DNA of 64,000 nucleotides, taken from Cryobacterium sp. Y57. Its GTDB lineage: Bacteria; Actinomycetota; Actinomycetes; Actinomycetales; Microbacteriaceae. Shown piece by piece: positions 6,708-21,423 of the stretch. The stretch is from NCBI RefSeq assembly GCF_002929505.1, contig NZ_PJJL01000064.1:1918-65917 (forward strand). Reading direction: 5' to 3'. The position numbers and the translations under genes were made by a program. Below the pieces are notes generated by a model that saw only the letters and a program-made list of their open reading frames with translations, searched no databases and had not been told where the DNA came from. Within the stretch, counting starts at the first letter, position 1. Each line of letters begins with the position of its first letter.

Positions 6708-7276
6708 GTGAGCCCCCAGAGAAGAATGCTGACATGAACGAACCGTCCACCCAGAAGTCAACGGTATCGCTCCGAGCAACCGAACGCAGAAACAGCTCCC
6801 GGGGTGGGCGCGTGAGGTCGTCGCTGATAAGCAAGTTCCCTCAGGAACGCTGGTGCAGCGTGCAATGATCAGCCGTCCGCCCGGAGGCCCAGCAGAATCT
6901 GCGCGTTCCGCACCGAGCAACGTCCTCCTCGTCCGCGGCGACCTCGGCCGGCGTTAGCAATCGGTCCGTTCGCAGAACGACGATTGCTATGAATAGCGAC
7001 ACGGCGACGCGCTATTTCGCGGATTCGTCGCGAGACCAATCTTTCTGCAGATGACGAGCGCGCCGACGCACTCCATCGAGGTCTAAAAGATCGAGCGTCC
7101 CGTAAGACGTTCGTGATGGGGCGTGCAGACTCCCCGTATCCCCCCTGTGCGCGCTCTTCTGTTGTTCGTCGTCGGCGCATGCCCCGGCCGGGTAGGCCGG
7201 ACCGTAGACTCACACTGTACGAGCTGGCGATTGGCAGAGTGGCCAAGCACAGCCGTGACCGAAGGAGGGGGTGCTC
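6708..7276. other. intergenic stretch between divergent lipoprotein genes
   Basis: About 570 bases upstream of two divergent lipoprotein genes. Open frames in it are arginine/serine-rich shadows. The segment near 7231-7246 (GGCAGAGTGGCCAAG) looks like part of a serine tRNA D-arm, but no matching acceptor, anticodon or T-arm follows. Confidence 0.5.
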
Positions 7277-7915
7277 TTGCGTCGATCTGGTCGCTTTCCT
7301 AGGGCGTGGACATTAGCCGTGGCTGCATCTATGGCGTCCGTCTGCGTATCTCTCACTGGATGCGCATCGACGACGGGCGCGGATGCGGCGAGCCTGGATT
7401 CGATCGCCGAGCTCGCGAGAGCTGTTGGTATCGCTCCTGAACTCGTGTACACGACTGAGGTGGACGGCTACGATCTCGCACCGCAGTCGGTCGGGCCGGG
7501 TGCTGCAGACGGGATGTCGGCTACCTGGTTCAACAGCAGCACGGGTGCGATGCTGACCATCCGTAGCGATTCCGGGAAACTTACGGAAGCGTCGTGTGCT
7601 GCGACACCCCTTTGGGATGCGCCCGGCGGAGCGGTGACGTGTGCCAATGAGGATGGCGTCTGGCATCGGTCGGCTGGAGGCATCCGCGAGTACGTCGCGG
7701 TGCGAGACGGTGCGCTGATCTGGGTATCCGGAATGAACGACGCGTCGCCAGCGGATCTTCTGACAGCCGCGAAGAAGGTGCACGTGCCATCGGATGCGGA
7801 ACTCGAACTGCTCTTCTCCGACGTTCCCAAGGCTCCGGGCGAACCGGTGGAGCGCGGAGACCTACCTGAGGGTGGCGACGGTGCGCCGATCGATCCGACC
7901 GGGCCGGGTGGTTAG
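7277..7915 (+). CDS. putative lipoprotein, unknown function
   Basis: TTG at 7277 is chosen as start because the strong Shine-Dalgarno AAGGAGG (7262-7268) is eight bases away from it and only two from the in-frame GTG at 7271. The 212-residue product has an arginine-rich N-region, a hydrophobic core and the lipobox LTGC (cysteine about residue 29). The mature domain holds a cysteine pair (SCAATPLWDAPGGAVTC) that could form a disulfide. The C-terminus is rich in Gly, Pro and acidic residues. It is likely exposed at the cell surface. No family was recognised. Confidence 0.75.
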   Translation: MRRSGRFPRAWTLAVAASMASVCVSLTGCASTTGADAASLDSIAELARAVGIAPELVYTTEVDGYDLAPQSVGPGAADGMSATWFNSSTGAMLTIRSDSGKLTEASCAATPLWDAPGGAVTCANEDGVWHRSAGGIREYVAVRDGALIWVSGMNDASPADLLTAAKKVHVPSDAELELLFSDVPKAPGEPVERGDLPEGGDGAPIDPTGPGG

Positions 7916-7968
7916 TTCCACTCCGCCGAATGCGGCCGCTTGCCGGGTCGCTCCTCATATCTCTAGCC

Positions 7969-8236
7969 CTAATCCTCGTGGCCGGCGAGGCGCCGTCTGA
8001 GCTCTAAGTTCTCACCCTGCGCCTTGGCCAGCGCGAGTTGGAGCTGGCTCAGTTCCCTCAGGTAGGCCTCGCGTTCGGATTTCAGCCGGGCCGAAAGACC
8101 GCACGGCAGCGGACGTGCTGGGGCGCTCGTCCGCTCCCGGCTCGGTTACGCGGAGGAGGTGTCTGCTTCGAAGCTGTTCGATACCGGCGTCACCCCTGAT
8201 GACACCCGACCAAACCAGCGCCGCCCTCGGCATCAA
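7969..8236 (-). pseudogene. broken DUF6262-type (TnpC-like) transposon protein
   Basis: On the minus strand one frame reads GIEQLRSRHLLRVTEP and, after a frame change near 8115-8130, a second frame reads LKSEREAYLRELSQLQLALA followed by KAQGENLELRRRL to a TAG at 7969. Together they resemble the C-terminal half of DUF6262 proteins, the small coiled-coil partners of tyrosine recombinases in Tn554-like elements. Family resemblance is judged from memory of the consensus. No accompanying TnpA/TnpB recombinase is present, so this is a decayed remnant and an early sign of the accessory island. Confidence 0.5.
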
Positions 8237-8420
8237 GCGGGACGTTCACCGTACAGTGAACCGCGACAGTCGGCATCGCTTGTCGACGCTCTTCGAAAAG
8301 TACACCGCGGGCGTTATTGTCCTGCTTCTCGAATACTAAGTGACCACATGGGCGCGGAGTGTCAGATGGGAACGGCTTTGGGCCGAGGTGACGTTCGCGT
8401 TCGGTTTCACGTCAGATCGT

Positions 8421-8443
8421 CCGGGTGGGGGTTCCCCCTGCGG
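8421..8443. repeat. short palindromic repeat, copy 3 (diverged)
   Basis: CCGGGTGGGGG-TT-CCCCCTGCGG is a G/C-rich hairpin with the same GGG-TT-CCC core as the copies at 745 and 4365. It lies in non-coding DNA upstream of the lanthipeptide operon. Confidence 0.45.
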
Positions 8444-9091
8444 AACGGAGCAAGAGTCGTGTATAGCCTGTTCATGATTCCTGGTCACCGTCCGGCCTAT
8501 GGGATGCCCGCTACTGGGCCCACGGGTGGGCGGTGGGCGGGGGTGGCGCTTCGGATGGCGGGCACTGCCTCGGGTCAACTCTTTGGGTTGAAGTTTTAAC
8601 TTTGGGCGAGCCTCCCGCAGCGGTGACGCGTGGGTGGACCAACCATCTGATACGGCATGATGAGGCCATGCCGTTGTACCCACACCTTGCAAACCGATTT
8701 GCAAATGCCCTTCCTGGCCTGTGTCTCGCTGTGTTCGCCGTATCGCAGCTTCCGGAGCGTCGACATTGCTCGGGCGGTGGAACAGCGAAATCTCCGACGT
8801 AAGGGAGCGGCTCGGCTTCTTCATCGATGCGCAGCCGAACTCCCTGAGGTCAACATCGCTGTATTCGCAACTGGCTCGATCTCGATCATCTATCGAGAAA
8901 GCGAAGTTCCTAAGAACGCGCCATTGAACAATCGAGTCCTTAGCGGACGTTTTGGCTCTATTACTACTTAGACCCTTAATATTCGAAGCAGGGCGGTGAC
9001 GCTACGCGCGGGTACTGACATCGATACCGACGGAACGGTACGGGCGGCTCGCGGGGCCCTTAGTAAAAGTCTGACGGAATGGTTATCAAAC
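8444..9091. other. non-coding stretch upstream of the lanthipeptide operon
   Basis: About 650 bases with only short, mutually overlapping open frames of no recognisable family. The base composition drifts toward A/T near 8960-9090, approaching the lanA promoter. I see no regulator gene (no LanR/LanK) here. Confidence 0.5.
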
Positions 9092-9121
9092 TTGACGTGA
9101 GACATTCAACTTCAGTACAGT
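9092..9121 (+). promoter_or_regulatory. probable promoter of the lanthipeptide operon
   Basis: TTGACG (9092-9097) and TACAGT (9116-9121) form a sigma-70-like pair with an 18-base spacer. It lies 44 bases before the first precursor ATG and just upstream of a strong G-rich ribosome binding site (GGGGGGGG, 9155-9162). Surrounding DNA is A/T-rich for this genome. Confidence 0.6.
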
Positions 9122-9165
9122 TTTACCCATTGGACTTGATAAAAACAAAACATTGGGGGGGGATT

Positions 9166-9384
9166 ATGAATACCGTAATCGAATGGAAGAATCTCGAACG
9201 ATCAGGGAGAAATCATCCAGCAGGGCTCGTGGAGCTCGACGACGTGGAGATGCGGGAGGTCAACGGCGGCACCACGCCTTGGTGCGCCACGGCAACAATC
9301 ATAATCGCAACAATTTCTGCCTGTTTTGGTAATACCGCGATATGGGGCTCATGTGAACTCGGCACTCGTGGCTGCTGCCGATAG
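9166..9384 (+). CDS. lanA1: class II lanthipeptide precursor 1 (beta-like core)
   Basis: This 72-residue precursor has a leader of 35 residues ending ELDDVEMREVNGG, a typical double-glycine site for C39 peptidases. The predicted 37-residue core starts TTPWCATATIIIATISAC and holds five cysteines (core positions 5, 18, 28, 35, 36), seven threonines and two serines, enough for up to five thioether rings. The N-terminal TTPWCAT with a hydrophobic run recalls the beta peptides of two-component lantibiotics (haloduracin beta starts TTWPCATV). The usual CPTTKC tail is absent and the C-terminus is instead RGCCR. The leader shares MNTxxxWKN and HPAG with the next precursor. Confidence 0.92.
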   Translation: MNTVIEWKNLERSGRNHPAGLVELDDVEMREVNGGTTPWCATATIIIATISACFGNTAIWGSCELGTRGCCR

Positions 9385-9402
9385 CGGATTGGGTATTGCG
9401 AA

Positions 9403-9633
9403 ATGAACACAATAACTCAATGGAAGAATACGTCTCTATTCGACGTCGATGAGTCAACACATCCTGCCGGTCGAGTCGATCTCACCGAGCTCAGTGATTT
9501 CGAACTCGATGGAATTAACGGCGCCGCGGGGACGGCCTTGGGTGGAACGTGGGGCTGCTGCTGGTGCGTGCCGTGGTATTCCAGCTGGACGCAGTGCGGC
9601 GTGATCTGCAGTCATCCCGGCTGCTCCTACTGA
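9403..9633 (+). CDS. lanA2: class II lanthipeptide precursor 2 (Cys/Trp-rich core)
   Basis: This 76-residue precursor has a leader closely matching precursor 1 (MNTITQWKN, HPAG, ELSDFELDGINGA). Alignment puts the C39 cleavage after Gly-Ala at residue 41, giving a 35-residue core. A second double glycine at residues 47-48 could yield a 28-residue core after trimming. The core contains six cysteines (52, 53, 55, 65, 69, 74), a CCWC cluster, four tryptophans and seven Ser/Thr. The spacing TQCGVIC loosely echoes the TxEC-x3-C ring motif of alpha peptides, but the glutamate is missing. It lies 18 bases after precursor 1 and is almost certainly cotranscribed with it. Confidence 0.92.
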   Translation: MNTITQWKNTSLFDVDESTHPAGRVDLTELSDFELDGINGAAGTALGGTWGCCWCVPWYSSWTQCGVICSHPGCSY

Positions 9634-9653
9634 GAACAAAGAGAAGCTCGGAC

Positions 9654-9682
9654 GCAGGACAGCCCGTAAAGGGCTGTCCTGC
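9654..9682 (+). terminator. attenuator hairpin between precursors and lanM
   Basis: GCAGGACAGCCC (9654-9665) pairs perfectly with GGGCTGTCCTGC (9671-9682) around a GTAAA loop, followed by CCCATTTTAA. A partial terminator here would leave precursor mRNA in excess over the modification and export genes, as is usual in lantibiotic operons. Confidence 0.8.
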
Positions 9683-9702
9683 CCCATTTTAAGGACATCA
9701 AT

Positions 9703-12700
9703 ATGGCTGCGGTCGTTCAGAATGCAAGTCCGACCTGGTGGAGGGCGATGAACCTCGATGAACGTCGTGACAACGGTAGGGCAAGCCGATACGACCAACC
9801 ATCTGGGGTTTTGCGCGCGTCGCGCTGGTTGACGCTGCCAGCACTCAAGGCGAAAACTTTATCGCGCGTTCAGGCTCTTTCACCTTTCGGCCTGTCTTGG
9901 GATGATCTCGAACACGCACTGGGTGAAACCGAGGAATCGCTGGCGAATCGGTGGCTCACTCAGCCAAAGTGGATGGAGGATCACTCTTCTTGGCTCGGAG
10001 ACGCAGAGGGGGATGCTCCAGAGATGGGCATGCTCAACGTTGTGCGCCCGCTTATCAGCGGTGCGAGGCGCGAGCTCAGGCAGAGACTTGGGTCAGTAAT
10101 TGATCTTGAACAGCCGTGGGGAGAATCGTTTGCCGTCGCGCTGTGCAACAAAGTCCCTCTGCAGGAGTTAAGTCAAGTCGTCGGCCTCACCATGGTGTTG
10201 GAATTGAACGTTTATCGGGAACTTGGCAAGCTGGTGGGGGGAACACCGGAGGAACGCTTTCGGTATTTCACTTCACTCTGTACCGAACCCGAACTGCAAT
10301 CTGCAATTCGCGAGGAGTACCCAGTACTCGTCCGCCAGGTTGCCGAACGATTGCGCTTCTGGATCGAACGCCGACTGGACCTTGCCCAAAGTTTTACAGA
10401 TGATGCTGAAGATATATCCGTGTCATTCTGGGCAGGGATGACGCCAACGACTGTCGACATAGATTTCGGTGCCGGTGATACGCATCGCGAAGGTCGGAGC
10501 GTGGCGATTTTTACTACCGACGTCGGAAAGGTCGTCTACAAGCCCAGACGTCCGAACATGGAAAGAGCTTTCGCGGGAACAATCGACTGGTTCAATGCGA
10601 GTGGCCCGCCGTACAAGCTCCGGGTACCGGAAATGGTCGATCGAGGAGAGTATGCGTGGTTTGAGTTCATCAAATCAGAACAGATTCCATTAGGAGGAGC
10701 CGACCAGTGCAGCTGGCGCTTAGGCGCCTTGAACGCGGTGCTGTTTGCACTTCAGTCCACAGATTTCCACCACGAGAACATCGTCTACGCCGGCGTGATG
10801 CCCGTTCCTGTCGACCTCGAGTCTTTGCTCCACACGGAACGAAGGTACGCCAACGAGGACCGTTCCGACTTGGTCAACGTAGCGAGCGATGCGCTCGCGG
10901 AGTCCTGCGTTGGTGTTGGTATTCTGCCAAGTCCCATAGTCACGAGCCGAGAGGGGCGTGTGTACTCCTCGGACATTTCTGCGGTGGGCTATCGTTCGGG
11001 GCAATCTGCCACAATTGCCATGCCGCGGTTCTTGAACGAGTCATCAGATGAAATGCATGTTGTGAACGGCCCGGCACCTCTCACCAGCGCCGACGACGCG
11101 TCTATGGATCGGGAAGTCTTGTGGGGCCGCCGCGAAGAGTTCCGCGCCGGATTTGCATGGGCGTACCGAGCCATCATCAGCGATCGTTCTGCATGGGTCG
11201 ACGCGGGCGGTCTCATTGATGGTTATGCAAACGCTCGTTCACGGTACATCCCCCGACCGACCATGGTCTACGGGAAACTACTCAGCGAGTCTTACCATCC
11301 AGACTTTATGCGCGACGGAGTTGATCGCGATTTATGCCTCGGGAAACTCTTGGCTGGCTACGCGAATCGACCCGAGCGAGAGGCTCTCATCCGCGCTGAG
11401 ATAGCAGATCTGCGCCAGGGCGACATACCATTCTTCGAAGTTGACGCCTTGACTGGAGAGTTCATTGCGGCCATGGACACAATTCGAGTCTTGGGGGGTA
11501 CCGAACCTCCGATTGAGCGCATCCGTTCTCGCATACGTGAGGGTATGGGCGCACAGGACCTCAAACTTCAGCTGCAATTGATCGACTACTCATACGCAAC
11601 CCTTCCTCACTCAGAGGCTCCACTCCGAGTGCCACTGCCAGCGTTGACCGACCCGATTGGAGACTCTCGCGACCAAAGGCTGACCACGTCGCTCGACCTC
11701 ATCCGGGAGCTGCGGGAAAACATGGTGATTAGGCCCAATGGTGTGGGATGGATGTCCATGGCAGCAATCGGCGAAACCGTCTGGGTCACAAAACCTACGA
11801 CAATGGACGTGTACGGCGGGCTGAGTGGAATAGCCCTAGCCCTCGAGGGAGTCGCGATTGCGACCGAAGAGGAGTGGGTCGAGACGCTACGGCTTGAGGT
11901 TTTGGACCAGATCAAGGCGTACGGTCCCTTGATCGACACTGATGCCGAGTCAATCGAGAAGATTCGCCAGTCGCAGAATTCGGGCGCATTCGGGCACATC
12001 GGCGGATTCGCTTTGACCATGGGCCGGGAATGGATCCGCAATGGCGACGAAGGCGCCCGCCAAGCCAGCGCACGTGCCCTCGATGTACTACGTGCCTTGG
12101 CACCTTCGGACGGCCATCACGACTTCGTTACTGGGAATGCCGGGGTGCTTTCCCTCATCGATGCCTTGGCCGGCGTTCTCGATAGGCCGGCGCACCTGAC
12201 CGCCCTCGCGGACATTTCGCGTGCGCTCGAGTCGGCGGCAATTCGCGACACGAGGGGCGCACGCTGGCAAGGGGAGGGCAACGACCGTCCGCTAATCGGA
12301 TTTTCTCATGGGACTACGGGTATCGCTTGGTCCCTTGTTCGAGCTGCCGAGGCACTTGAGCGACCAGAGCTTGCCGAACTTGCAGGCGATGCCCTCCGTT
12401 TTGAACGGGTGAATTCCGAACTGGCTGCTGGGGATTGGCCCGACCTGCGGTCGCTACCAATTGGGACCGACCATATGCGTGCGTGGTGCCACGGCAGTCC
12501 CGGTGCAGGATTCGGTCGAGCACTCATTCAAAAGCGCGGAATTCAGCTGGACCCCGTTGTTCACCAAGAGCGAAAGCGGGCTATCGCCACGACAGCTCTG
12601 ACGCTTAGCGTTGAGAACGGCCGAGGCGCGGGCAATAATTCTCTGTGCCACGGAAACGTGGGGAACCTGATCTGCCTTGAAACGATGTTGGGCGTGGATT

Positions 12701-12906
12701 TGGGTCGCACGGAGGTTACCAACCGGACCGATAAGGCCTGGGAACGCATCATTGGTTCAATTCGGTCCACGGGCGGCCTCTCCGGCGCGGCAACCGGCGT
12801 CGTGATCCCCGATCTCATGATGGGTTACGCGGGCATCGCATGGGGCCTGGCATATTCTACTCGGCAAGCCCCTTCGTTCAACATCCTCGCGCTGGATACG
12901 GAGTAA
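9703..12906 (+). CDS. lanM: type 2 lanthipeptide synthetase LanM
   Basis: The 1067-residue bifunctional enzyme carries an N-terminal kinase-like dehydratase domain. It has VVYKPRRPN (Lys280), TDFHHENI (Asp354, His356) and PVDLESLL (Asp371, Glu373), the residues used to phosphorylate and eliminate Ser/Thr. The C-terminal LanC-like cyclase (from about residue 700) has GFSHGTTGI (866-874) and the zinc ligands Cys929 (AWCHG), Cys982 and His983 (LCHGN). Length and order match the LanM family. It is the only synthetase in the operon, so it probably modifies both precursors, whereas most two-component systems have two LanM enzymes. A ribosome binding site (AAGGA) follows the attenuator. Confidence 0.95.
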   Translation: MAAVVQNASPTWWRAMNLDERRDNGRASRYDQPSGVLRASRWLTLPALKAKTLSRVQALSPFGLSWDDLEHALGETEESLANRWLTQPKWMEDHSSWLGDAEGDAPEMGMLNVVRPLISGARRELRQRLGSVIDLEQPWGESFAVALCNKVPLQELSQVVGLTMVLELNVYRELGKLVGGTPEERFRYFTSLCTEPELQSAIREEYPVLVRQVAERLRFWIERRLDLAQSFTDDAEDISVSFWAGMTPTTVDIDFGAGDTHREGRSVAIFTTDVGKVVYKPRRPNMERAFAGTIDWFNASGPPYKLRVPEMVDRGEYAWFEFIKSEQIPLGGADQCSWRLGALNAVLFALQSTDFHHENIVYAGVMPVPVDLESLLHTERRYANEDRSDLVNVASDALAESCVGVGILPSPIVTSREGRVYSSDISAVGYRSGQSATIAMPRFLNESSDEMHVVNGPAPLTSADDASMDREVLWGRREEFRAGFAWAYRAIISDRSAWVDAGGLIDGYANARSRYIPRPTMVYGKLLSESYHPDFMRDGVDRDLCLGKLLAGYANRPEREALIRAEIADLRQGDIPFFEVDALTGEFIAAMDTIRVLGGTEPPIERIRSRIREGMGAQDLKLQLQLIDYSYATLPHSEAPLRVPLPALTDPIGDSRDQRLTTSLDLIRELRENMVIRPNGVGWMSMAAIGETVWVTKPTTMDVYGGLSGIALALEGVAIATEEEWVETLRLEVLDQIKAYGPLIDTDAESIEKIRQSQNSGAFGHIGGFALTMGREWIRNGDEGARQASARALDVLRALAPSDGHHDFVTGNAGVLSLIDALAGVLDRPAHLTALADISRALESAAIRDTRGARWQGEGNDRPLIGFSHGTTGIAWSLVRAAEALERPELAELAGDALRFERVNSELAAGDWPDLRSLPIGTDHMRAWCHGSPGAGFGRALIQKRGIQLDPVVHQERKRAIATTALTLSVENGRGAGNNSLCHGNVGNLICLETMLGVDLGRTEVTNRTDKAWERIIGSIRSTGGLSGAATGVVIPDLMMGYAGIAWGLAYSTRQAPSFNILALDTE

Positions 12907-12912
12907 CTCCTC

Positions 12913-13353
12913 GTGGATATCGTGAAGGCCACAAAAGCACCCGGAAGCGATTGGTTGCGAACAGGAGGTGTACCGGAATTTGTCCCGAGCAAAGCGACAT
13001 CCGTTATAGCGATCGCGTTATTTGGAGTCACCCTGTCTATGGGCTTTTTGATTCACGTACCCTACAAGGTGGAGGTAACGGTGGTCGCCACGGCGCCGGA
13101 TTCATTGCGTCTAGCCGGCCTCAATATTCCGTCAGATTTCAGCAGTATTCCCGAACTTCAGATCGAGTGGGCCACCGGAAGCGTCACCGGAAAACCGGGG
13201 GTGCTTGAGGCAATTCCCGACTCAGGTGCGAAGGCTGCAATTGTTGCGATTGGTCCTGTGGAGGGACAGCCACCAGAGAGCTACGACCCGGCTGTGTTAG
13301 ATCTTGGCTCCAAGCCAATCCTGGTCGTACTCTGGGACGGATTGACATCGTGA
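12913..13353 (+). CDS. membrane-anchored accessory protein of the lanthipeptide operon
   Basis: This 146-residue protein (GTG start) has a cytoplasmic N-terminus of about 33 residues, one membrane helix (about 36-55, SVIAIALFGVTLSMGFLI) and a roughly 90-residue outer domain rich in beta-like alternation. The layout recalls the first strand and membrane anchor of HlyD-type adaptor proteins without the coiled coil, but no family was firmly recognised. It starts six bases after lanM and overlaps lanT by GTGA, so its synthesis is coupled to the exporter. A role as an exporter partner or in immunity is inference. Confidence 0.75.
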   Translation: MDIVKATKAPGSDWLRTGGVPEFVPSKATSVIAIALFGVTLSMGFLIHVPYKVEVTVVATAPDSLRLAGLNIPSDFSSIPELQIEWATGSVTGKPGVLEAIPDSGAKAAIVAIGPVEGQPPESYDPAVLDLGSKPILVVLWDGLTS

Positions 13354-15485
13354 GTAAACGAGTACCTGTTATGTTGCAGGCGGTCCAAACCGAATGTGGA
13401 TTGGCGTCACTAGCGATGGTGGCCTCTACACTTGGCCGTTTCACGTCTGTGCGCGAGCTGCGGGGAGTTATCGTCACCGGCAGGGACGGTACGTCCCTAC
13501 TTCAGCTCAAACGTGCCGCTCTCGAAATTGGCTTCGACGCGAGAGCCTACCGTCCCGATCCGGCCCAGCTTGCGGAACTGGCATTGCCGGTTCTTGCGGC
13601 ATGGGACGATGCACATTTTGTGGTGATTGAACGCCTCTCACGCGGAGAAGCCGCCATCGTGGATCCTGCCGGCGGTCGATCGGTCCTCTCTGCGGAAGAT
13701 TTCTTTGAACACTTCGCAGGCACTGTTCTTACGCTGAAACCGACACCAAGGACAGTTAAGATTCGTCGGCCGCGGCTTGGCTTGGTTTCGTTCTTGGTTC
13801 CGCACCTACCCCGAGCTGCGAGTTCACTTCTGCTCTTAGTCTCCGCGGCTCTGCTACTCACGGCAGTAGCGGTGATTCCGGCTCTTCTGCTTGGCTTCGT
13901 GGTCGATAACGTTATTCCGTTCCGCGATGAAGGCTCTCTGTGGCTATTGGGAGCATTCGCTCTCGTGATGGTCGCCTCGTATTACGCTGTCTCGTACCTT
14001 CGTTCGGATTTGATCCTGTGGGTGGAGAAACGCTTGGATGCGTCGCTGCTCAGCACAGTTCTTGCCAAACTGTTTACCCTTCCCTACTCGTTCTTCCAGG
14101 GCCGTCCTGCGGGAGACTTGCTCGTGCGATTCTCAAGCACTGCCTATGTTCGCGATGTCTTGAGCGGCCGGTTGTTTCCAATCCTTATTGACCTGGTCTT
14201 CTTAGTCGTATACCTGGCCATAGTCGGGTCGCACTCGATCGTCTACCTCGGCTTGCTGATTGCTTTCGGACTGCTGCAGATTGGCTTGATCGCCGGGTTT
14301 TCTCCACGAGCCAGAAGGCTCGCGGATCACGAAGTTAGTGAGATGTCCAAGACGCAAAGCGTGATGCTTGATACATTGCGTGGAGTCGAATCCATGAAGG
14401 CGCTCGGTACGGAGGAAGAGTCATTCTTTCGATGGAAGACCGCCTTTCAGCGGCAGCTGGAAGTGAGCGTCGAACGAACGCGCGTTGACAACCGTTTGTC
14501 GGCGATCTTGGAATCCCTCGGATTCATCACGCCGGTACTGGTTTTGCTGCTGGGTGTGACCTACGTCATCAGCGGCGACCTATCTCTGGGCGCGATGCTC
14601 ACGGTCAACGCCCTCGCGGCTTCTGCGCTCGTTCCTATTCGCTCAATAGGTATGAACCTTCAGGTCCTCCAGACCGTACGCGTGCACTTGGATCGATTGC
14701 GCGACATTACAGACGAAGCCGCAGAGGTGGTGAACGAGCAGCTGCCTCACCACGTCTTCCAGGGCAAGGTAGAACTGGAATCGGTGGACTTTCGGTATGG
14801 TTCCGAGGGCGAGCCCGCGCTTACCGGCATCACTCTCGTCATCGAGCCAGGTCAAGTTGTGGCAATCATCGGGCCCTCAGGCTCCGGGAAAAGTACGCTC
14901 GCCAGGCTTGTGCTCGGGTTGCACCGTCCGACGGCAGGGCGCATTCTCTTCGACGACATCTCAATGACGAACATCAATTTGCGGAGTATCCGCACGTCTT
15001 CTGGGATGGTCACGCAAGGGAACGAGGCCTTCAGCGGCTCGATCGAAAGCAATATACGAGTAGGGAGGAGCGGCGTCACCGCATCTGATGTGCGGAATGC
15101 GGCACGAGTTGCTGCATTTGACGGCGACATCGCCGCCATGCCGCTCGGTTATGACACTCCGCTTGGCGAATCGGGACTTGGCTTGTCGGGCGGTCAGCTG
15201 CAGCGCCTTGCGATTGCTCGCGCCGTGGCGGCTAGTCCGCGGCTACTCGTTCTTGATGAGGCCACGAGCCACCTCGATGGCCCGACAGAGAAAATTGTCG
15301 CGCGGAACCTATCGGAGGTGAGCGCGACCCGAATTGTTATTGCCCATCGACTTAGCACTGTTCTCGACGCCGACAAGATCGTGCTCATTCTAAATGGTCG
15401 AATCGCTTGCTCCGGAACGCATGACGAGCTGCTGGCGAACAGAGACTACTCTTCGTTTATAGACAGCCAACTCATCCAACCTTGA
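13350..15485 (+). CDS. lanT: peptidase-containing lanthipeptide ABC exporter LanT
   Basis: The 711-residue protein begins with a C39 cysteine-peptidase domain: Gln10, catalytic Cys16 (QTECGLASL), His89 (DDAHFVVI) and Asp105 (IVDPAGG). Six membrane helices follow (about 150-430) and then an ABC domain with Walker A GPSGSGKST (508-516), signature LSGGQ (612-616) and Walker B LLVLDEATS. All catalytic residues are present, so it should cleave the leader after the double-glycine-type sites (VNGG, INGA) and export the mature peptide. The start GTG overlaps the upstream gene. Confidence 0.95.
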   Translation: MSKRVPVMLQAVQTECGLASLAMVASTLGRFTSVRELRGVIVTGRDGTSLLQLKRAALEIGFDARAYRPDPAQLAELALPVLAAWDDAHFVVIERLSRGEAAIVDPAGGRSVLSAEDFFEHFAGTVLTLKPTPRTVKIRRPRLGLVSFLVPHLPRAASSLLLLVSAALLLTAVAVIPALLLGFVVDNVIPFRDEGSLWLLGAFALVMVASYYAVSYLRSDLILWVEKRLDASLLSTVLAKLFTLPYSFFQGRPAGDLLVRFSSTAYVRDVLSGRLFPILIDLVFLVVYLAIVGSHSIVYLGLLIAFGLLQIGLIAGFSPRARRLADHEVSEMSKTQSVMLDTLRGVESMKALGTEEESFFRWKTAFQRQLEVSVERTRVDNRLSAILESLGFITPVLVLLLGVTYVISGDLSLGAMLTVNALAASALVPIRSIGMNLQVLQTVRVHLDRLRDITDEAAEVVNEQLPHHVFQGKVELESVDFRYGSEGEPALTGITLVIEPGQVVAIIGPSGSGKSTLARLVLGLHRPTAGRILFDDISMTNINLRSIRTSSGMVTQGNEAFSGSIESNIRVGRSGVTASDVRNAARVAAFDGDIAAMPLGYDTPLGESGLGLSGGQLQRLAIARAVAASPRLLVLDEATSHLDGPTEKIVARNLSEVSATRIVIAHRLSTVLDADKIVLILNGRIACSGTHDELLANRDYSSFIDSQLIQP

Positions 15486-15520
15486 ATCTATCCAGTCGCG
15501 TCACCAATGAAGGGAACACC

Positions 15521-15691
15521 ATGAAGAAAACGTACTTAATTCTGGTCGCGTCGGGCGGCATCCTGCTGATCGTGAACAATATTTTCGCCGGACTAATGCT
15601 TATCAATGTAGCTGCCGTACTACTAATCCTGGTCCCCCCGCTGACATATCTGATCAATCATTTTTTCCGCAAGGCGAACGGATCCGTGTGA
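15521..15691 (+). CDS. 56-residue two-helix membrane protein, possible immunity peptide
   Basis: The product starts MKKTYLILVASGGILLIVN and is almost wholly hydrophobic, with two helices (about 4-20 and 24-44) and a basic end (FFRKANGSV). A Shine-Dalgarno-like AAGGGAA stands upstream of ATG 15521. Small hydrophobic proteins at this place in lantibiotic operons are often immunity factors (LanI/LanH type), but there is no sequence family to confirm it. It lies between lanT and the immunity-type ABC exporter on the same strand. Confidence 0.75.
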   Translation: MKKTYLILVASGGILLIVNNIFAGLMLINVAAVLLILVPPLTYLINHFFRKANGSV

Positions 15692-15727
15692 ACGTGCGCC
15701 ACAGAGTGTCCTTACTGTGGAGGACTT

Positions 15728-16657
15728 ATGCGCGTCACGTTTGAAGGCATCACCAAGTCTTACAAGAACCCTGTATTACACGGATTGACCTTCGAAGTGC
15801 GACCCGGCCGGGTTACTGGGTTCCTCGGTCCGAATGGTGCAGGGAAGAGTACGACCTTGTCTCTCATGGTCGGCCTCGTAGCGGCCGACGGCGGTCAGGT
15901 TCTTTTTGATGGATTGTCCTATGAGAGCCTCGGCCCTCGGCGTCGGTTAGTAAGCGTCGCCCTGGATTCCTTTGGGTTCAACCCATTTGTCACAGGCCGG
16001 AGGCATCTTCAATACGTCGCGGCGGCCTATTCACTTCCGCGCGAACGGGTTGAACAATCATTGACCCTTGCGGGTCTCGAGAACGCCGCCGACCGGCAAG
16101 TACGCGGGTACTCTCTCGGGATGAGACAACGACTCTTGATAGCGGAGGCGCTCATTAGCGACCCGGCCGTCATAGTTCTTGACGAACCCGCAAATGGCCT
16201 CGATCCCGAAGGTATCCTTTGGCTGCGTCGAACTCTGCGTCAGTTGGCTGACTCAGGTAAAACCGTGCTGGTCTCGTCGCATGTCCTTTCCGAGGTTGAA
16301 CAGATTATTGATGACGTCGTAATGATCGCCGATGGACGTTTACTGTATGCGGGGTCCCTAGTGGAACTTGCCCTTGCCGGTTCTTCCAAGGTCAAACTCC
16401 ACACACTTGACGTGACCTCTCTCGTCGGTGTTTGCGCGCTACACGGTGTAATTCCTACATCCATCGATGCGTTAGGGGTAACGATGTCGTCTCGTGATGC
16501 AGAACGGATAGCTGCGGCGCTGCAGCAGAATGCTGATTTCGTTGTAAGTGCGCGCGAGCTCATTGGTGAAAGCCTAGAATCGTTGTATTTCGATCTCCTC
16601 GCTTCGAGAAACACCAGCCGTGTTGACGCACTATCTGGCGATCAAGGATGGGATTGA
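15728..16657 (+). CDS. ABC transporter ATP-binding protein, LanF-type self-protection
   Basis: This 309-residue subunit has Walker A GPNGAGKST (34-42), signature YSLGMRQRL (about 128-136), Walker B VIVLDEPANGLDPEG and an H-loop SSHVLSE. The wording GMRQRL and GLDPEG is that of the BcrA/LanF/Nod branch of drug and lantibiotic self-immunity ATPases. A C-terminal extension of about 90 residues follows the ATPase core. It starts 36 bases after the two-helix protein and ends three bases before the permease gene, so the two form one transporter that probably expels the mature peptide from the producer membrane. Confidence 0.9.
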   Translation: MRVTFEGITKSYKNPVLHGLTFEVRPGRVTGFLGPNGAGKSTTLSLMVGLVAADGGQVLFDGLSYESLGPRRRLVSVALDSFGFNPFVTGRRHLQYVAAAYSLPRERVEQSLTLAGLENAADRQVRGYSLGMRQRLLIAEALISDPAVIVLDEPANGLDPEGILWLRRTLRQLADSGKTVLVSSHVLSEVEQIIDDVVMIADGRLLYAGSLVELALAGSSKVKLHTLDVTSLVGVCALHGVIPTSIDALGVTMSSRDAERIAAALQQNADFVVSARELIGESLESLYFDLLASRNTSRVDALSGDQGWD

Positions 16658-16660
16658 CCA

Positions 16661-17458
16661 ATGCACGATATTTGGTTGGAACTTCGGCGAGTTTTCTCGA
16701 CCCGAGGATGGCTCTACCAGTTGCTGGCCCTACTAGCCTTCGTAGCTATATTCCCTGCGGTAATCGCAGTCACGATCACATCGTCTTTTCCGGCGGACGA
16801 AATCTTGCCACAAACAATCCTCAGCTACCTGTACAGTTTTGTCGGCCGTGCGGCGTACTTCGCACCATTTCTCTTCGGTGTTCTTCTCGTTACTAGTGAA
16901 TTTCACAACAACACGATCGCACGATCGATTTTTTTCTCGAGGTCGCGAGCATCGCTTTATATGTCCAAAATCGTTGCTGTTTTTGCCATCTCGATTCTGT
17001 ATGCGGTTCTGTCAACCGCCGTCAGCGCTACGACAGTAAGTAGCGCGCTCGCACTGCAGGGCTTCGACTCGCAAGTGTTCGAGTGGGCCAACGTTTCGAT
17101 CGGCGTGCGCACCGTATTTGCCTTTGCGATCTGGGGAGTACTGGGCGTTGGTCTCGGTGCCCTTCTCCGCAGTCAGATCGTAAGTATTGTCACGGTTTTC
17201 ATGTTTACGCTTTTCATCGAGCCGATGTTGACTTCATTGAGCAACGAGAACGAAGTGCTGAGATCGGTAGGCAGATATCTTCCCGGCGCAGCCAACTGGT
17301 CTGCCGTGTGGCCCCCGGAAGATGCTGGTGTGAATCCGTTTGAGTCAGCAGCGTCATCTCTGGGCTGGGAAACAGGATTGTTGATTTTGCTGGCATATTC
17401 GCTTGTGTTCGCCGTGATCGGTTACCTTATCGGGCTTCGTCGGCGCGACCTAGCCTGA
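16661..17458 (+). CDS. ABC-2 type permease, LanE/LanG-type self-protection
   Basis: This 265-residue protein has about six membrane helices in the ABC-2 pattern. The stretch FGVLLVTSEFHNNTIARSIF is the conserved post-helix-2 motif (TSEFxxxTIARSI) of BcrB/LanE-type permeases. It is the last gene of the lanthipeptide operon. Only one permease is encoded, so it likely acts as a homodimer with the preceding ATPase. The combination is an export-based immunity system against the producer's own lanthipeptides, inferred from family and position. Confidence 0.88.
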   Translation: MHDIWLELRRVFSTRGWLYQLLALLAFVAIFPAVIAVTITSSFPADEILPQTILSYLYSFVGRAAYFAPFLFGVLLVTSEFHNNTIARSIFFSRSRASLYMSKIVAVFAISILYAVLSTAVSATTVSSALALQGFDSQVFEWANVSIGVRTVFAFAIWGVLGVGLGALLRSQIVSIVTVFMFTLFIEPMLTSLSNENEVLRSVGRYLPGAANWSAVWPPEDAGVNPFESAASSLGWETGLLILLAYSLVFAVIGYLIGLRRRDLA

Positions 17459-17571
17459 CCGACTACGGGGCATCCTCACCCGCGACGGCCGATCGGTGGC
17501 TGCCGTACCGGCCCAAAGCTTGTTATTAAACACACGGCTTTTCTTTTCCTACGGGGGAGACGATGACTTTA

Positions 17572-17740
17572 GGGGCTCTTCGCAATTGAAGGTGTAGTTG
17601 GGGTGCGCGGATCGGGCGCGTCGTTGGGCTAAAAGAGGTCGAGGCCTTCCCATGATGGAAGTTCCAACACTGCCCATCAGGAAGACCTCGACATGTCCCA
17701 GACTACTTTTGTTAACGCCGACCCAAAACAGGGCCAATAG
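17572..17740 (+). pseudogene. ISL3-family left end with truncated transposase start
   Basis: GGGGCTCTTCGCAATTGAAG (17572-17591) resembles ISL3-family terminal repeats. An ATG at 17693 opens MSQTTFVNADP, which matches the N-terminus of ISL3 transposases (usually followed by TTFCRLD), but the frame diverges after DP and stops. A near-perfect inverted repeat (17638-17650 and 17680-17692) lies directly before the ATG and could be an operator or mRNA hairpin. The family call is from remembered consensus. Confidence 0.5.
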
Positions 17741-17747
17741 TGCCTTG

Positions 17748-18051
17748 GGTTCTACTGGTCGTTGCAACACCCAGACTCTTGGGAGTTTGCATGACCACGA
17801 TAAAGCCGGCCGATGAGCCCTCGACCGACGAACAGAATCCGCGCGCGGACAAGGCGTCTTTTCTGATCTTGCTGGAGCGTCTTGGGGACGCGACTGCTAC
17901 CTCGGCTGAGCTTGGCATCAACCGGGGCGCTGGCTACCGTTGGGCGCGCAGCGACGTTGATTCCGCCGCGTCACGTGTGCGGGGAGCGAGGTCCGAGAGC
18001 ATGAGCCAATTATCCGCCCTCGGACGGCTGTCAGGAGGAGAGAACCTGTGA
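17748..18051 (+). pseudogene. IS30-family left end with truncated transposase
   Basis: GGTTCTACTGGTCGTTGCAA (from 17749) looks like an IS30-type left repeat. It resembles the reverse complement of the right end near 143-167. ATG 17791 opens an 86-residue frame with FLILLERLGDATATSAELGI followed by NRGAGYRWARS, the helix-turn-helix at the start of IS30 transposases. The catalytic part is missing, so the element is truncated. It sits directly behind the ISL3 remnant and 150 bases before the Tn402-like transposon. Confidence 0.55.
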
Positions 18052-18197
18052 CCGAGAACTGCCTGTACAGACTACGGAATCTTGTGAAATCAACGTGCTG
18101 CAGGTGTCTCACACCGTTGATTTGTTTCGAAAACGTAGCCTCTGGTTTCGATACATAGTTGTGAGACTCCCCAGCCCTATGAATCCATCTCTCTCCG

Positions 18198-18243
18198 TGT
18201 CATTTTCCACACTCGTCTGCACGGATGTCAGTACTCGTCTGCA
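18198..18243. repeat. left transposon end: terminal repeat plus inner TniA site
   Basis: The terminal repeat 18198-18222 ends CACTCGTCTGCAC. A second copy of the motif, CAGTACTCGTCTGCA, follows at 18229-18243. Repeated CGTCTGCAC-type motifs at each end are the expected TniA (TnsB-like) binding sites. Confidence 0.8.
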
Positions 18244-18522
18244 AACTTGGGTCTGGCCGTGACTAAGGCGGTATGGTTCCAATTGAATCCTTGCGGCGCG
18301 ACATTTTGCGCGAAGTTAGAGAGCGAGAATTTGAGAGCGTTTGAAGCTTCGACCCTGAACGAGGATCCCTGGAGGTCACGGCTTATCGTGCACGCAAGGC
18401 GGTCTGCTGGTGTGACGACCTGAGACTCTGGCATCGTCCGGGAGCGCAGTAGGTGAGCGCGTGGGTGGTCACAGATTGGCAACGAGCCGTGCCGCGCAAT
18501 CTCGGCTGGGTTATTGTCAAGT
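18223..18522. other. left part of the transposon before the cargo genes
   Basis: About 280 bases after the left-end sites. One open frame on the minus strand (18228-18575) has no recognisable family and overlaps the cargo lipoprotein start, so it is not called. It may hold the cargo promoter, but no clear hexamers were found. Confidence 0.4.
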
Positions 18523-18969
18523 GTGCGGAAACTTTGGGTGGGTACGTTTCTCGTGCTGTCGAGCCTGGGTCTCACGGCGTGCGTGCCGCCCGGGTTTGCA
18601 TGTTCGGCCGTTGGTTACCCAAGCGTGGCCAAGATCGCCTTGGCCGAGCCGACGGCGGGCGTCGAGCTTGAGCTGTGTGATGGTGCGGGTTGCGTGCCGG
18701 GACCACCGATGGCGCCCGTCGAGATGCAGCCAGCGCGCACAACGGCGGAGCCGATTATTGAAGATACGGGTGTGTTCACTCTCGTCGGAGACGGTGTTTC
18801 AGGTTGGAGCGCGGACTTTGTCGGCGGCCAATCGGTGGTGGGATATCGATTGACTAACACGGCACGTGGAGTGGTTGTCGAAGGCACCATTGACGTCGAC
18901 TGGGTTCGTGTCGGCGGAACTGAGCGCTGTGGTGGGCCCAGGGAAGCGGACATCGAACTGCCCTCCTGA
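18523..18969 (+). CDS. transposon cargo: putative lipoprotein
   Basis: From GTG 18523 the 148-residue product begins MRKLWVGTFLVLSSLGLTAC, a clear lipoprotein signal with the lipobox cysteine at residue 20. An in-frame TTG nine bases earlier is an alternative start. The mature part has four more cysteines, a Pro-rich stretch (PGPPMAPVEM) and a predicted beta-rich end. It should be tethered on the outside of the membrane. No family was recognised. It and the following SdpI-like gene are the only cargo of the transposon and lie on the strand opposite to the tni genes. Confidence 0.7.
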   Translation: MRKLWVGTFLVLSSLGLTACVPPGFACSAVGYPSVAKIALAEPTAGVELELCDGAGCVPGPPMAPVEMQPARTTAEPIIEDTGVFTLVGDGVSGWSADFVGGQSVVGYRLTNTARGVVVEGTIDVDWVRVGGTERCGGPREADIELPS

Positions 18970-19127
18970 GGAGCTACGCCGATCATCCGAGTGAATTATC
19001 GGGTCGCTCGAACCTCCGCATGCACTGCGTCTCGCGGGGATACTGCCCAATCTGGTTCGCACATACGAGGTGATCCGATTTTCCATGGCTCAATCGGACA
19101 CCAATCAAGATTGGCGTGAAATAGAAG

Positions 19128-19442
19128 ATGCTCCTGAGTCTCGTCGCTGTATTTGCTTCGCTTTTCTCGTTACTTGTCGTAGCGCTCGGCGCGTTCGGAG
19201 TGATTCCACCGAACCGAGTCATTGGACTGCGCACGAATACAACCCTGCGGTCCAAGCCAACGTGGCGCACGGTACACCGGCGGGCACTTATCCCGATGTC
19301 GGTCACGACTTTGGCAGCTGCTGGTTGCTGGCTTCTCTATCCAGCGGGGATTGTCGAGAGTAGCGCAGCCGTCGCATTCGGCTTCATTGTCCTCGTGGCT
19401 GGATTGTTATGGGCGTGGGCGTATGGCGTCCGAGGCGTTTGA
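19128..19442 (+). CDS. transposon cargo: SdpI-family membrane protein
   Basis: This 104-residue protein has three membrane helices (about 2-25, 52-72, 78-100) and the loop VIPPNRVIGLRTNTTLRSKP followed by TWRTVHRRA. That loop matches the SdpI/YhfL family signature (N-x-x-x-G-x-R-x-x-x-T-L-x-x-x-x-x-W-x-x-x-H). In Bacillus subtilis SdpI protects against the SdpC toxin, but many family members have no known role. As cargo on a transposon and close to a lanthipeptide locus, an immunity function is plausible but unproven. Confidence 0.75.
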   Translation: MLLSLVAVFASLFSLLVVALGAFGVIPPNRVIGLRTNTTLRSKPTWRTVHRRALIPMSVTTLAAAGCWLLYPAGIVESSAAVAFGFIVLVAGLLWAWAYGVRGV

Positions 19443-19499
19443 ACGCTCCGCGAACGATGCCGCAAAAGATAAATGATGTGTGATGCGTGATGCGCACAG

Positions 19500-20135
19500 T
19501 CAGCGCGCGGCCAGTTGAGGTTTACCCTTTCCGATCAGCTTCGCCCCGTCGGGACGCAGTTCTCCGAATGGGGAGACATGGCGATACAGGGTCTGCCGGC
19601 TGATGCCGAGTTCTCTACAGAGCTCGCCAACCTTGGTTTCCTTCTGCCCCATAGCGGCCATGGCTGTGCGCACTTTGGCTGCGGTCATTTTGTATGGGCG
19701 GCCGCCTTTGCGTCCGCGGGCGCGCGCCGCGGTAAGTCCCGCGATGGTGCGCTCTGAGATCAGCGCTCTTTCGAACTCGGCCAGCGCAGCGAAGATTCCA
19801 AAGACCAACTTGCCGGACGCGGTCGTAGTGTCGATCGCGGCGCCCTCCCCGGTGAGAACTTTCAGGCCAACGCCTCGGTCGGTGAGGTCGTGCACGGTGT
19901 TGACCAAGTGGCGCAGGTCACGTCCGAGGCGATCAAGTTTCCAGACCAGAAGAGTGTCACCATCTCGAAGCGCTTTCAGGCACGCCGCCAACTGCGGGCG
20001 GTCGTCCTTCTTCCCCGAAGCATGGTCCTCATAGAGATGCTCTGCGTCGACGCCGGCCAGCAGCAACGCATCGCGCTGCAAGTCGGTGCTTTGCGATCCG
20101 TCAGCTTTGGACACGCGCATATAACCCACGAGCAT
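19500..20135 (-). CDS. tniR: serine resolvase/invertase of the transposon
   Basis: The 211-residue protein begins MLVGYMRVSKADGSQ with the catalytic serine at residue 9. It continues through VWKLDRLGRDLRHLV and the E-helix AALAEFERALISERT, all standard for the small serine recombinases. A C-terminal helix-turn-helix (ELCRELGISRQTLYRHVSP) binds DNA. Its gene lies next to tniQ with a res-like dyad in between. In the Tn402/Tn5053 group TniR resolves cointegrates formed by TniABQ. The C-terminus (to LAAR) extends somewhat beyond the usual length. Confidence 0.93.
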   Translation of the reverse strand: MLVGYMRVSKADGSQSTDLQRDALLLAGVDAEHLYEDHASGKKDDRPQLAACLKALRDGDTLLVWKLDRLGRDLRHLVNTVHDLTDRGVGLKVLTGEGAAIDTTTASGKLVFGIFAALAEFERALISERTIAGLTAARARGRKGGRPYKMTAAKVRTAMAAMGQKETKVGELCRELGISRQTLYRHVSPFGELRPDGAKLIGKGKPQLAAR

Positions 20136-20146
20136 GATGAAACCCC

Positions 20147-20174
20147 TGTCACTTATACGGTCGAATACGTGACA
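20147..20174. promoter_or_regulatory. resolvase res site, probable crossover subsite
   Basis: TGTCAC (20147-20152) and GTGACA (20169-20174) bound a 28-bp dyad, the length of a resolvase crossover subsite. Another TGTCAC half-site at 20206-20211 suggests accessory subsites in the rest of the 88-bp gap between tniR and tniQ. Confidence 0.75.
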
Positions 20175-20223
20175 ACGTGCAGTCGTCTTCGTCGGCGTCG
20201 AAAATTGTCACTTGACCCGTCAT

Positions 20224-21423
20224 TTAGTCTAAGTCCTGTAAACCCACCTTGGTTTGTCTTGTGTGATGGAAATCGAGGGGGATGCCCAGTTCGAGGAACA
20301 GGCTCACCGCGTAGTGGATCTGTTCGGCGTCGTCTTGCTTGTAGGTTGCCAGGTTGAAGAGGGTGCGTGCATCGGCGGGATTGATGCGTGCTGCGTCGAC
20401 GGCCTCCTGGAAGGCATCCATCAGAGTTGGTAGGGCGCCGTTTGGGGTGGATGGTGGATGCGGCAGCGTGCCGTCGCTGAGAGTGATTTCGTGCATCGGA
20501 TGAAAGAGGGCTGCGTCAGTGCCCGAGCCGGCGATGGCATCAGATTCCAGAAGTAGGACGGCGGTCGCAGCGGCCTCCATGGTGTGCTGCTGCACCGATT
20601 CGGCTTGCTGTTCGTAGGGGTGCCAAGATGATTGCCCGTCACGGACGCGATATCCGGTCTGTGTCCAGATCTGCCGGATGATCTTGGCGTCGGCGGGGTG
20701 GTTCTCCGACAGGGGGCAGCTGAGCTCGTCGATGATGGTGCGGAGCAGCCGGAACCAGATCCCGGCGTGCACACTGCGCCGTGGCAGTTCGACCTGGCCA
20801 ATGGTGAAGGCGTCCTGCGTGCGTTGGTCCATCTTCAGGAGGTGTTCCGGAGCAGCTCGTAGCACCGGCGGATCGAAATCCCAGAGACGAAAGTAGCCAC
20901 GGGGCGCGAGGGTCGCCTCAAGCCAGCAGCCGTGAATGGGGCAGGTGGAGATGAGAGGGACTGCCCACAGCAGCAGATATGGTTTCGGCGAGTCACTGGC
21001 AGCGACGCATTTTGGGCACGCTCGAGAGTGAAGATGCGAGGATAACCACGGCCGCCAGCTGGGGACTAAGCGTGACTTGAATCTGCCAGCGGGTCGCAGC
21101 ACCGACAGCTGCCGGGTATAGGTGGCGAAACTCTCGGGGCTGCGCTGCATGTCGTCCAGCAGCCAGGGAACCCAGCCGGCCACACTCATCTGCCGCAACC
21201 GGTCCGGGTCGACGCCGGTGCGAATGGTGAGAACGTCGATCATGCCCGGCGGCGGTGCCAGGTCGATGTCCTCATGACTGCCCGGTCCGAGGGTGAAGCC
21301 GAGGTCATCACCAAGCACCTCAAGTTCTGCGCTGTAGCACGCCGCAATACGCCGAAGCCAAGAGGAAAGCGCCTCACCAGGAAGAGGCACGGGATGGAGC
21401 GGCCATCGGCGGACTTCGGTCAC
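20224..21423 (-). CDS. tniQ: TniQ transposition protein
   Basis: The 399-residue protein starts with the TniQ motif WPLHPVPLPGEALSSWLRRI. It has a zinc-binding block with Cys136, Cys139, Cys161 and His164 (ACPKC followed by TCPIHGCWL), as in the TniQ/TnsD family. TniQ is needed for target-site choice and transposition in Tn402/Tn5053 elements. The start overlaps the tniB stop by four bases, showing a tniA-tniB-tniQ operon on the minus strand. The length is in the normal range, so it appears complete. Confidence 0.93.
   Translation of the reverse strand: MTEVRRWPLHPVPLPGEALSSWLRRIAACYSAELEVLGDDLGFTLGPGSHEDIDLAPPPGMIDVLTIRTGVDPDRLRQMSVAGWVPWLLDDMQRSPESFATYTRQLSVLRPAGRFKSRLVPSWRPWLSSHLHSRACPKCVAASDSPKPYLLLWAVPLISTCPIHGCWLEATLAPRGYFRLWDFDPPVLRAAPEHLLKMDQRTQDAFTIGQVELPRRSVHAGIWFRLLRTIIDELSCPLSENHPADAKIIRQIWTQTGYRVRDGQSSWHPYEQQAESVQQHTMEAAATAVLLLESDAIAGSGTDAALFHPMHEITLSDGTLPHPPSTPNGALPTLMDAFQEAVDAARINPADARTLFNLATYKQDDAEQIHYAVSLFLELGIPLDFHHTRQTKVGLQDLD

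What the first reader, a model, noticed from the sequence alone, without database searches (positions are those of the whole stretch)
9092..17458. Apparently new class II lanthipeptide operon with two unlike precursors and one LanM
Seen directly: two adjacent precursors with related leaders but very different cores, one intact LanM, a C39-peptidase LanT and an ABC self-protection system in one operon of about 8.3 kb. Two-component lantibiotics normally have two LanM enzymes, so a single synthetase handling a beta-like and a Cys/Trp-rich peptide is notable. Neither core matches a named lantibiotic I can recall.
Basis: partly seen in the sequence, partly recalled or inferred. Interest (0 to 1): 0.85.

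Follow-up and report, generated by a model that had tools for sequence, protein, structure and literature searches.

The report
Roseocin-type two-peptide lantibiotic gene cluster
This is a real and complete-looking gene cluster for a pair of ring-bearing, probably antibacterial peptides, but it belongs to the already described roseocin family, in which one enzyme modifies both peptides; it is a divergent member rather than a new kind.

Summary
Window 9166-17458 encodes two adjacent lanthipeptide precursors, one intact CHG-type LanM (the only LANC_like match found in the genome), a C39-peptidase LanT and a probable ABC protection pair. Peptide 1 ends in GSCELGTRGCC and peptide 2's core begins TALGGTWGCC; in these places they fit the published roseocin beta (GS/TxxxxS/TxGCC) and alpha (S/TxxxxTxGCC) motifs. 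Roseocin is a two-peptide lantibiotic made by one LanM (PMC10027976). The window is distant from them: LanM at most 38%, precursors 30-54% identical. At the positions of roseocin L8, S12 and V22 its alpha core has W, W and Q, which the authors tested one at a time. Its beta core has 5 Cys where the Streptomyces beta has 6, so one ring is probably missing. A hairpin lies between lanA2 and lanM in 8 of 8 clusters. Verdict: new member of a known kind. Modification, synergy and activity are inferred from roseocin, not shown here.

The parts
9166..9384 (+). lanA1, beta-type precursor (72 aa); leader 9166-9270, core 9271-9381; 5 Cys and 9 Ser/Thr in the core; C-terminal motif GSCELGTRGCC
9403..9633 (+). 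lanA2, alpha-type precursor (76 aa); leader 9403-9525 (NGA site, inferred), core 9526-9630; 6 Cys and 7 Ser/Thr in the core; motif TALGGTWGCC at the start of the core
9654..9682 (+). hairpin between lanA2 and lanM, perfect 12-bp stem with 5-nt loop; probable partial terminator or mRNA stabiliser
   Evidence: z -5.18; a hairpin in the same gap in 8 of 8 clusters
9703..12906 (+). lanM, class II lanthipeptide synthetase, CHG type, 1067 aa; the only LANC_like match in the genome
12913..13353 (+). small protein (146 aa), modelled as one N-terminal membrane helix then a beta-strand domain; a frame of like size in the same place in the seven relatives; function not known
   Evidence: of the seven relatives tblastn hits only L023 (27%, E 0.004), so likeness rests mainly on place; no Pfam, NCBIfam or PHROG match of the window protein; Foldseek without a match at E <= 0.001
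13350..15485 (+). lanT, C39 peptidase-ABC exporter (711 aa), expected to remove the leaders at GG/GA and export the peptides
   Evidence: 41-46% identical to LanT of the seven relatives
15521..15691 (+). ORF for a 56-aa hydrophobic peptide between lanT and lanF; possible small immunity protein (guess)
   Evidence: not found in the seven relatives by tblastn at E <= 0.01
15728..16657 (+). lanF, ABC transporter ATPase, probable self-protection
   Evidence: TIGR03740 163.6 bits, below its cut-off of 309.75; 47-51% to the counterpart behind lanT in six of seven relatives, not in L028
16661..17458 (+). lanG, ABC-2-type permease, probable partner of lanF
   Evidence: ABC2_membrane_4, 22.8 bits against cut-off 27; tblastn match in five of seven relatives: 45% in L038, 37% in L104, 28% in the three Streptomyces

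Best explanation
The cluster is a divergent member of the roseocin family, of the type with two precursors and one LanM. Shown by sequence: the parts, their order, the motifs, the intact LanM and LanT and the shared ancestry of LanM. Inferred from roseocin: the single LanM dehydrates Ser/Thr and closes thioether rings in both precursors; LanT cuts after NGG (beta) and NGA (alpha) and exports them; the alpha core keeps four thioether rings and one disulfide (Cys55-Cys74 of the precursor, equivalent to roseocin Cys13-Cys33); the beta core has at most five rings instead of six; the two act together on the membrane of Gram-positive competitors; LanFG protects the producer. The hairpin after lanA2 most likely lets more transcript of the precursors than of the enzyme accumulate, as proposed for cytolysin.
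For: [quoted passage not shown] the window cores have them in those places. Reference: the alpha core of Streptomyces globisporus 1912-4Crt (L025; contig of the same length as that of G722) agrees with every roseocin alpha stretch and position printed in the section read: 2-SGVLGTLGCC-11, 18-SGWTVCGLAC-27, L8, S12, C13, V22, C33. Against that cluster the window shows A1 45%, A2 43%, M 33%, T 45%, F 49%, G 28%, in the same order. Tree: 8 of 8 type 2 LanM rows, the window among them, form one side of a branch, SH-aLRT 99, 0 of 500 label shuffles as low (37 of the 90 rows collected). One LANC_like in a genome of 100% stated completeness. Hairpin in 8 of 8; a stem-loop between the structural genes and cylM is described for cytolysin (PMC3709268, passages seen).
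Against: No mass, expression or activity data. The two published patterns overlap: as bare patterns each fits both window peptides, and only the place in the core tells alpha from beta. LanM identity is low (38% at best); the nearest relatives, L038 and L104, are uncharacterised, and L038 sits on a very long branch, so its place is unsure. The tree has SH-aLRT support only, no bootstrap. Window leaders score far lower on TIGR03898 than those of L025 (24.6 and 27.1 bits against 63.9 and 57.6); L104 falls below the cut-off or has no match and L038 has none. The NHLP leader signature that the paper names for the family was not found in the window leaders. The hairpin is weak evidence in two near-identical Streptomyces (L025 z -2.52, 3 of 200 shuffles as good; L024 z -1.99, 8 of 200), and no long T run follows it in the window. 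L028 has a third precursor-like frame without the motif (6901-7110); its lanF is not behind lanT, and lanG had no match in L028 or L030.
Confidence: 0.92

Rival explanations
1. The two peptides share one LanM but are two separate single lantibiotics without joint action.
For: No activity data exist. The cores are very unlike each other (8 identities in 51 columns).
Against: Each precursor aligns with its roseocin-like counterpart, roseocin is reported as synergistic (abstract), and the beta-alpha pair stays together and in the same order in the 7 relatives.
Confidence: 0.12
2. A lacticin 3147/haloduracin-type two-peptide system that lost its second LanM.
For: Peptide 1 resembles beta peptides of that group at its start (recalled) and weakly matches LchA2/BrtA2 (NF038161, E 7e-4, 19.9 bits, below its cut-off of 26).
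Against: The alpha core lacks the CTxTxD/EC lipid II motif named (tested). The seven relatives show one LanM each in the stretches held. The LanM groups with theirs. No second LANC_like in the genome.
Confidence: 0.03
3. A decaying, silent cluster: recently acquired, with lower G+C, shortened leaders and a ring-poor beta peptide.
For: G+C of the seven genes measured 0.53-0.58 against 0.64-0.66 for three of the four upstream genes compared, the fourth being 0.60. LanM in 1 of 57 genomes of the genus. In L038 the beta core keeps little but the last motif.
Against: The main reading frames are open and LanM and LanT motifs are intact. L104 has the same 5-Cys beta type, which speaks for a stable form and not for decay.
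Confidence: 0.1

Closest known systems
Roseocin (Streptomyces roseosporus), type 2 roseocin-family cluster; compared here through the S. globisporus, S. rubiginosohelvolus and S. spinoverrucosus clusters
   Same: Two precursors with the family motifs in the right places, one CHG-type LanM, a small frame and C39 LanT after it, ABC protection genes; Cys positions of the alpha core conserved
   Different: LanM 33-35%, precursors 41-45% identical to the three Streptomyces clusters; alpha has W, W and Q at positions L8, S12 and V22; beta has 5 Cys instead of 6; shorter leaders; other host group
   Same: Closest LanM found (38%); same gene order; 5-Cys beta with NDTALWGSC..GTRGCC; Trp at the S12 position
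   Different: F and K at the L8 and V22 positions; leaders look shorter still (start codons chosen by eye); not characterised
Paeniglutamicibacter terrestris ANT13_2 cluster (L038)
   Same: Alpha core CCWCLPWYSSWTKCG very close to the window's CCWCVPWYSSWTQCG; LanG 45%
   Different: Beta core reduced to little more than GSCQLGTRGCC; LanM 29% identical and on a long branch
Cytolysin (Enterococcus faecalis)
   Same: One LanM for two unlike peptides; stem-loop between structural genes and lanM (PMC3709268, passages seen)
   Different: Other peptide sequences (recalled, not compared here); extra protease CylA and regulators CylR1/R2 (passages)
Lacticin 3147 / haloduracin type
   Same: Two-peptide class II lantibiotics (recalled: also C39 LanT)
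   Different: Two dedicated LanMs and, in most alpha peptides, CTxTxD/EC; both absent here

Membership tests
Roseocin family, type 2 | Alpha core with S/TxxxxTxGCC at its N-terminal end | tested here: met
   TALGGTWGCC from the third residue of the inferred core; motif from PMC10027976 section 16
Roseocin family, type 2 | Beta core with GS/TxxxxS/TxGCC at its C-terminal end | tested here: met
   GSCELGTRGCC followed by one Arg
Roseocin family, type 2 | One CHG-type LanM for two precursors | tested here: met
   (1 match in the genome); C982-H983-G984 of LanM
Roseocin family, type 2 | LanM groups with RosM-like LanMs | tested here: met
   SH-aLRT 99, no bootstrap; RosM itself was not in the tree, S. 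globisporus LanM stood in for it
Roseocin family, type 2 | Shared gene order beta-alpha-LanM-small frame-LanT with ABC protection genes | tested here: met
   ABC ATPase not behind lanT in L028, which also has a third precursor-like frame
Roseocin family, type 2 | NHLP leader signature | tested here: inconclusive
   No NHLP match in the window leaders at E <= 1; of 8 precursors of relatives only the L025 beta matches TIGR03793, at 17.9 bits against a cut-off of 50.9
Roseocin family, type 2 | Four thioether rings plus a disulfide in alpha; six rings in beta (roseocin itself) | not testable with these tools
   The six alpha Cys align with those of L007; beta has five Cys, so six rings are not possible
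Roseocin family, type 2 | Synergistic antibacterial action | not testable with these tools
   Needs purified peptides
Lacticin 3147-type two-peptide lantibiotics | Two dedicated LanMs | tested here: not met
Lacticin 3147-type two-peptide lantibiotics | CTxTxD/EC lipid II motif in alpha | tested here: not met
   Absent from both window precursors; motif

The most novel reading that the evidence does not exclude
The window, L104 and L038 form a branch of the roseocin family, in the window's order, in which the leaders have shortened, the beta peptide has lost one ring (most of the core in L038), and the alpha peptide has Trp at S12 and Q or K at V22. If so, the alpha peptide in this branch may rely less on a full beta partner. 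The W/W/Q alpha of the window would then be a natural test of the authors' remark that V22Q, harmful alone, may need other changes beside it. The one-helix protein between lanM and lanT would be an undescribed accessory of export or protection.
Probability: 0.3. Interest if true: 0.42.

Novelty: new member of a known kind. Interest (0 to 1): 0.24.

Why it matters
It adds a distant member (LanM at most 38% identical to any found in the searches made) to a small family of one-enzyme two-peptide lantibiotics, and comparison of the eight clusters shows what is kept: the GCC motifs, the alpha Cys pattern and a hairpin after the precursors. Its alpha core combines, in a natural setting, three substitutions that were tested singly in roseocin (L8W: MIC halved against M. 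luteus; S12W: no gain, and worse against S. aureus; V22Q: loss against both), so it can be used to ask whether their effects depend on each other. It would not overturn anything.

Tried and rejected
BGC as cargo of the neighbouring transposon: considered because a Tn402/Tn5053-like set of genes lies at 19500-24004 with its cargo side towards the BGC (layout recalled). Rejected: the two 26-bp ends are at 18198 and 24147 with a perfect 5-bp duplication CTCCG on the outside, so the element begins 0.74 kb beyond lanG.

Empty site in sister genomes: not resolved. The lipoprotein gene at 7271-7915 is 96-98% identical in 7 of the 57 genomes of the genus besides the window's own, but in the two regions fetched only 0.9-1.3 kb around it matches, plus, in one of them, a piece of the transposon's right end. 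The right-hand flank gene was sought too and is at best 62% identical, in 5 of 57 genomes with the own one counted.

Protein between lanM and lanT as a shortened membrane-fusion (HlyD-like) protein: suggested by eye. Families gave nothing consistent. The model (mean pLDDT 78.8, pTM 0.59) matched mostly F1-ATPase chains, none at E <= 0.001. Left open.

Close relatives by pattern scan with the LanM alone: genome contigs and viral contigs gave none. Plasmid records gave 183 with a match, the 20 listed at 30% identity or less; the two I opened show no precursor pair with the motifs. The alpha alignment found only the window's own genome among 386 of the phylum.

Is the sequence in print? Three short core strings found no paper; figures and supplements are not covered by that search. 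The supplementary alignments of PMC10027976 could not be read, and the sections that I read do not name its natural V22Q and L8W homologues, so this very peptide may be one of its 13 type 2 members. Names tried in its main text (Microbacteri-, Leucobacter, Paeniglutamicibacter, Glycomyces) do not occur. Searches for literature on the hairpin gave one useful paper.

Dropped before counts: one search kept only motif frames with set limits on position and Cys number; one search kept only plus-strand LanM rows over 800 aa (L104 turned round first), and one search used 37 of those 90 rows, chosen by me.
Full report
What is there. The region 9166-17458 holds, on one strand and closely packed, lanA1 (9166-9384), lanA2 (9403-9633), lanM (9703-12906), a 146-aa gene (12913-13353), lanT (13350-15485), a 56-aa ORF (15521-15691), and an ABC ATPase (15728-16657) and permease (16661-17458). 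Both precursors reach the cut-off of TIGR03898, narrowly, and LanM is far above that of TIGR03897. LanM residues D259, H261, K280, D354, H356, N359, D371, E373, R514 and T520 and, in the cyclase, H869, C929, H930, C982 and H983 are present and invariant in an alignment of seven LanMs; their catalytic roles are recalled, not tested. LanM matches LicM2 and CylM among solved structures. The genome, stated as 100% complete, holds one LANC_like match, this one.

What it is. The roseocin paper (PMC10027976; abstract, introduction, results sections 15, 16, 19 and 20 and the first part of the discussion read) gives S/TxxxxTxGCC at the N-terminal end of the alpha and GS/TxxxxS/TxGCC at the C-terminal end of the beta peptides. 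The window's second precursor has TALGGTWGCC at the start of its core, its first has GSCELGTRGCC at its end. As bare patterns each fits both peptides, so the place matters; no other stop-to-stop frame of the window has either. The S. roseosporus cluster with two precursors and one LanM is described in PMC3951391 of 2014 (abstract and section on actinobacteria read); PMC7268733 (passages seen) puts roseocin alpha and beta in precursor families II29 and II2. A LanM search of 394 genomes of the class found the window's own genome and 10 others at E <= 1e-60. The best of these, G722, lies on a contig of the same length (42,896) as Streptomyces globisporus 1912-4Crt contig_23 (L025), and its alpha core agrees with all roseocin alpha stretches and positions in the section read. 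I take it as roseocin in all but strain; RosM itself was not fetched.

Relatives. I scanned 98 loci for the two motifs, with limits on position in the frame and Cys number; 21 gave a hit, some being the same contig fetched more than once. Clusters with an adjacent beta-alpha pair followed by one LanM, counted here as type 2, are L023, L024, L025 (Streptomyces), L028, L030 (Glycomyces), L038 (Paeniglutamicibacter terrestris) and, from a search of 396 genomes of the order (3 with a match, own included), L104. tblastn of the window's genes shows the order A1-A2-M-T in these seven, with a frame of 128-199 codons between lanM and lanT; that frame is alike mainly in place and size, since tblastn of the window's 146-aa protein hits only L023. 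L028 has a third precursor-like frame in front, without the motif. In the LanM tree (37 of 90 rows collected) the eight type 2 rows stand on one side of a branch with SH-aLRT 99; the window is with L104 (88) and L038 (100). L038 has a long end branch and its place is unsure.

How it differs. At the positions of roseocin L8, S12 and V22 the window alpha has W, W and Q. The paper made L8W, S12W and V22Q one at a time because they occur in homologues: L8W halved the MIC against M. luteus, S12W gave no improvement and was worse against S. aureus, V22Q lost potency against both, and the authors remark that V22Q may depend on other residues. Among the 8 type 2 alpha cores here only the window has all three; five of the eight have W at S12 (window, L028, L030, L038, L104). 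The window beta has 5 Cys against 6 in the S. globisporus beta; the Cys before GSC is replaced (..NTAIWGSC.. against ..GTLCGSC..), and L104 shows the same loss. By the paper's own argument from missing partners (section 20) this suggests that one ring is missing. Leaders are shorter than in Streptomyces and score lower on TIGR03898.

Hairpin. Between lanA2 and lanM lies a perfect 12-bp stem, 9654-9682 (z -5.18). A long hairpin lies in the same gap in 8 of 8 clusters although most of the sequences differ; z-scores run from -1.99 to -5.18, the weakest being the near-identical L024 and L025. In cytolysin a stem-loop in front of cylM is thought to be a conditional terminator (PMC3709268, passages seen). 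I infer the same role here. Rfam has no match at gathering scores in 8000-18500.

Distribution. LanM was found in 1 of 57 genomes of the genus (E <= 1e-20), 3 of 398 of the family (E <= 1e-40, own included; the other two at 28% identity and without the motifs in the loci held), and 3 of 396 of the order (E <= 1e-60). G+C of the genes is 0.53-0.58 against 0.60-0.66 for four upstream genes. This fits horizontal gain, but no empty site was shown.

Verdict. One LanM for two peptides is known from roseocin, cytolysin, carnolysin and bicereucin. New member of a known kind; interest is low to moderate.

Noticed in passing
window 18198-24147: Tn402/Tn5053-like element (type name recalled): resolvase, TniQ and two further genes taken as tniB and tniA on the minus strand (19500-24004), 26-bp inverted ends starting TGTCRTTTTC, perfect 5-bp duplication CTCCG. 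78.7% DNA identity over about 4.5 kb to two Cryobacterium plasmids.
   Followed up: yes
window 12913-13353: Protein modelled with one membrane helix and a beta-strand domain between lanM and lanT; a frame of like size in the same place in the seven relatives, without a family match. A hypothetical protein is named in the figure legends of the roseocin paper; whether it is this gene I could not see.
   Followed up: partly
window 7106-8373: A 0.9-1.3 kb piece carrying a lipoprotein gene is about 97% identical in two other genomes of the genus but without the surrounding DNA, as if it were a small mobile or swapped cassette.
   Followed up: partly
L038 7364-7579: Paeniglutamicibacter terrestris beta precursor has lost nearly all of the core except GSCQLGTRGCC, while its alpha core is well kept and its LanM is on a very long branch.
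   Followed up: no
L028 6901-7110: Glycomyces salinus: a third precursor-like frame (69 codons, leader like the beta leader, Ser/Thr/Cys-rich core without the GCC motif) in front of the beta gene.
   Followed up: no
window 17740-18051: Short frame just right of the BGC that reads like a piece of a transposase or DNA-binding protein; judged by eye only.
   Followed up: no
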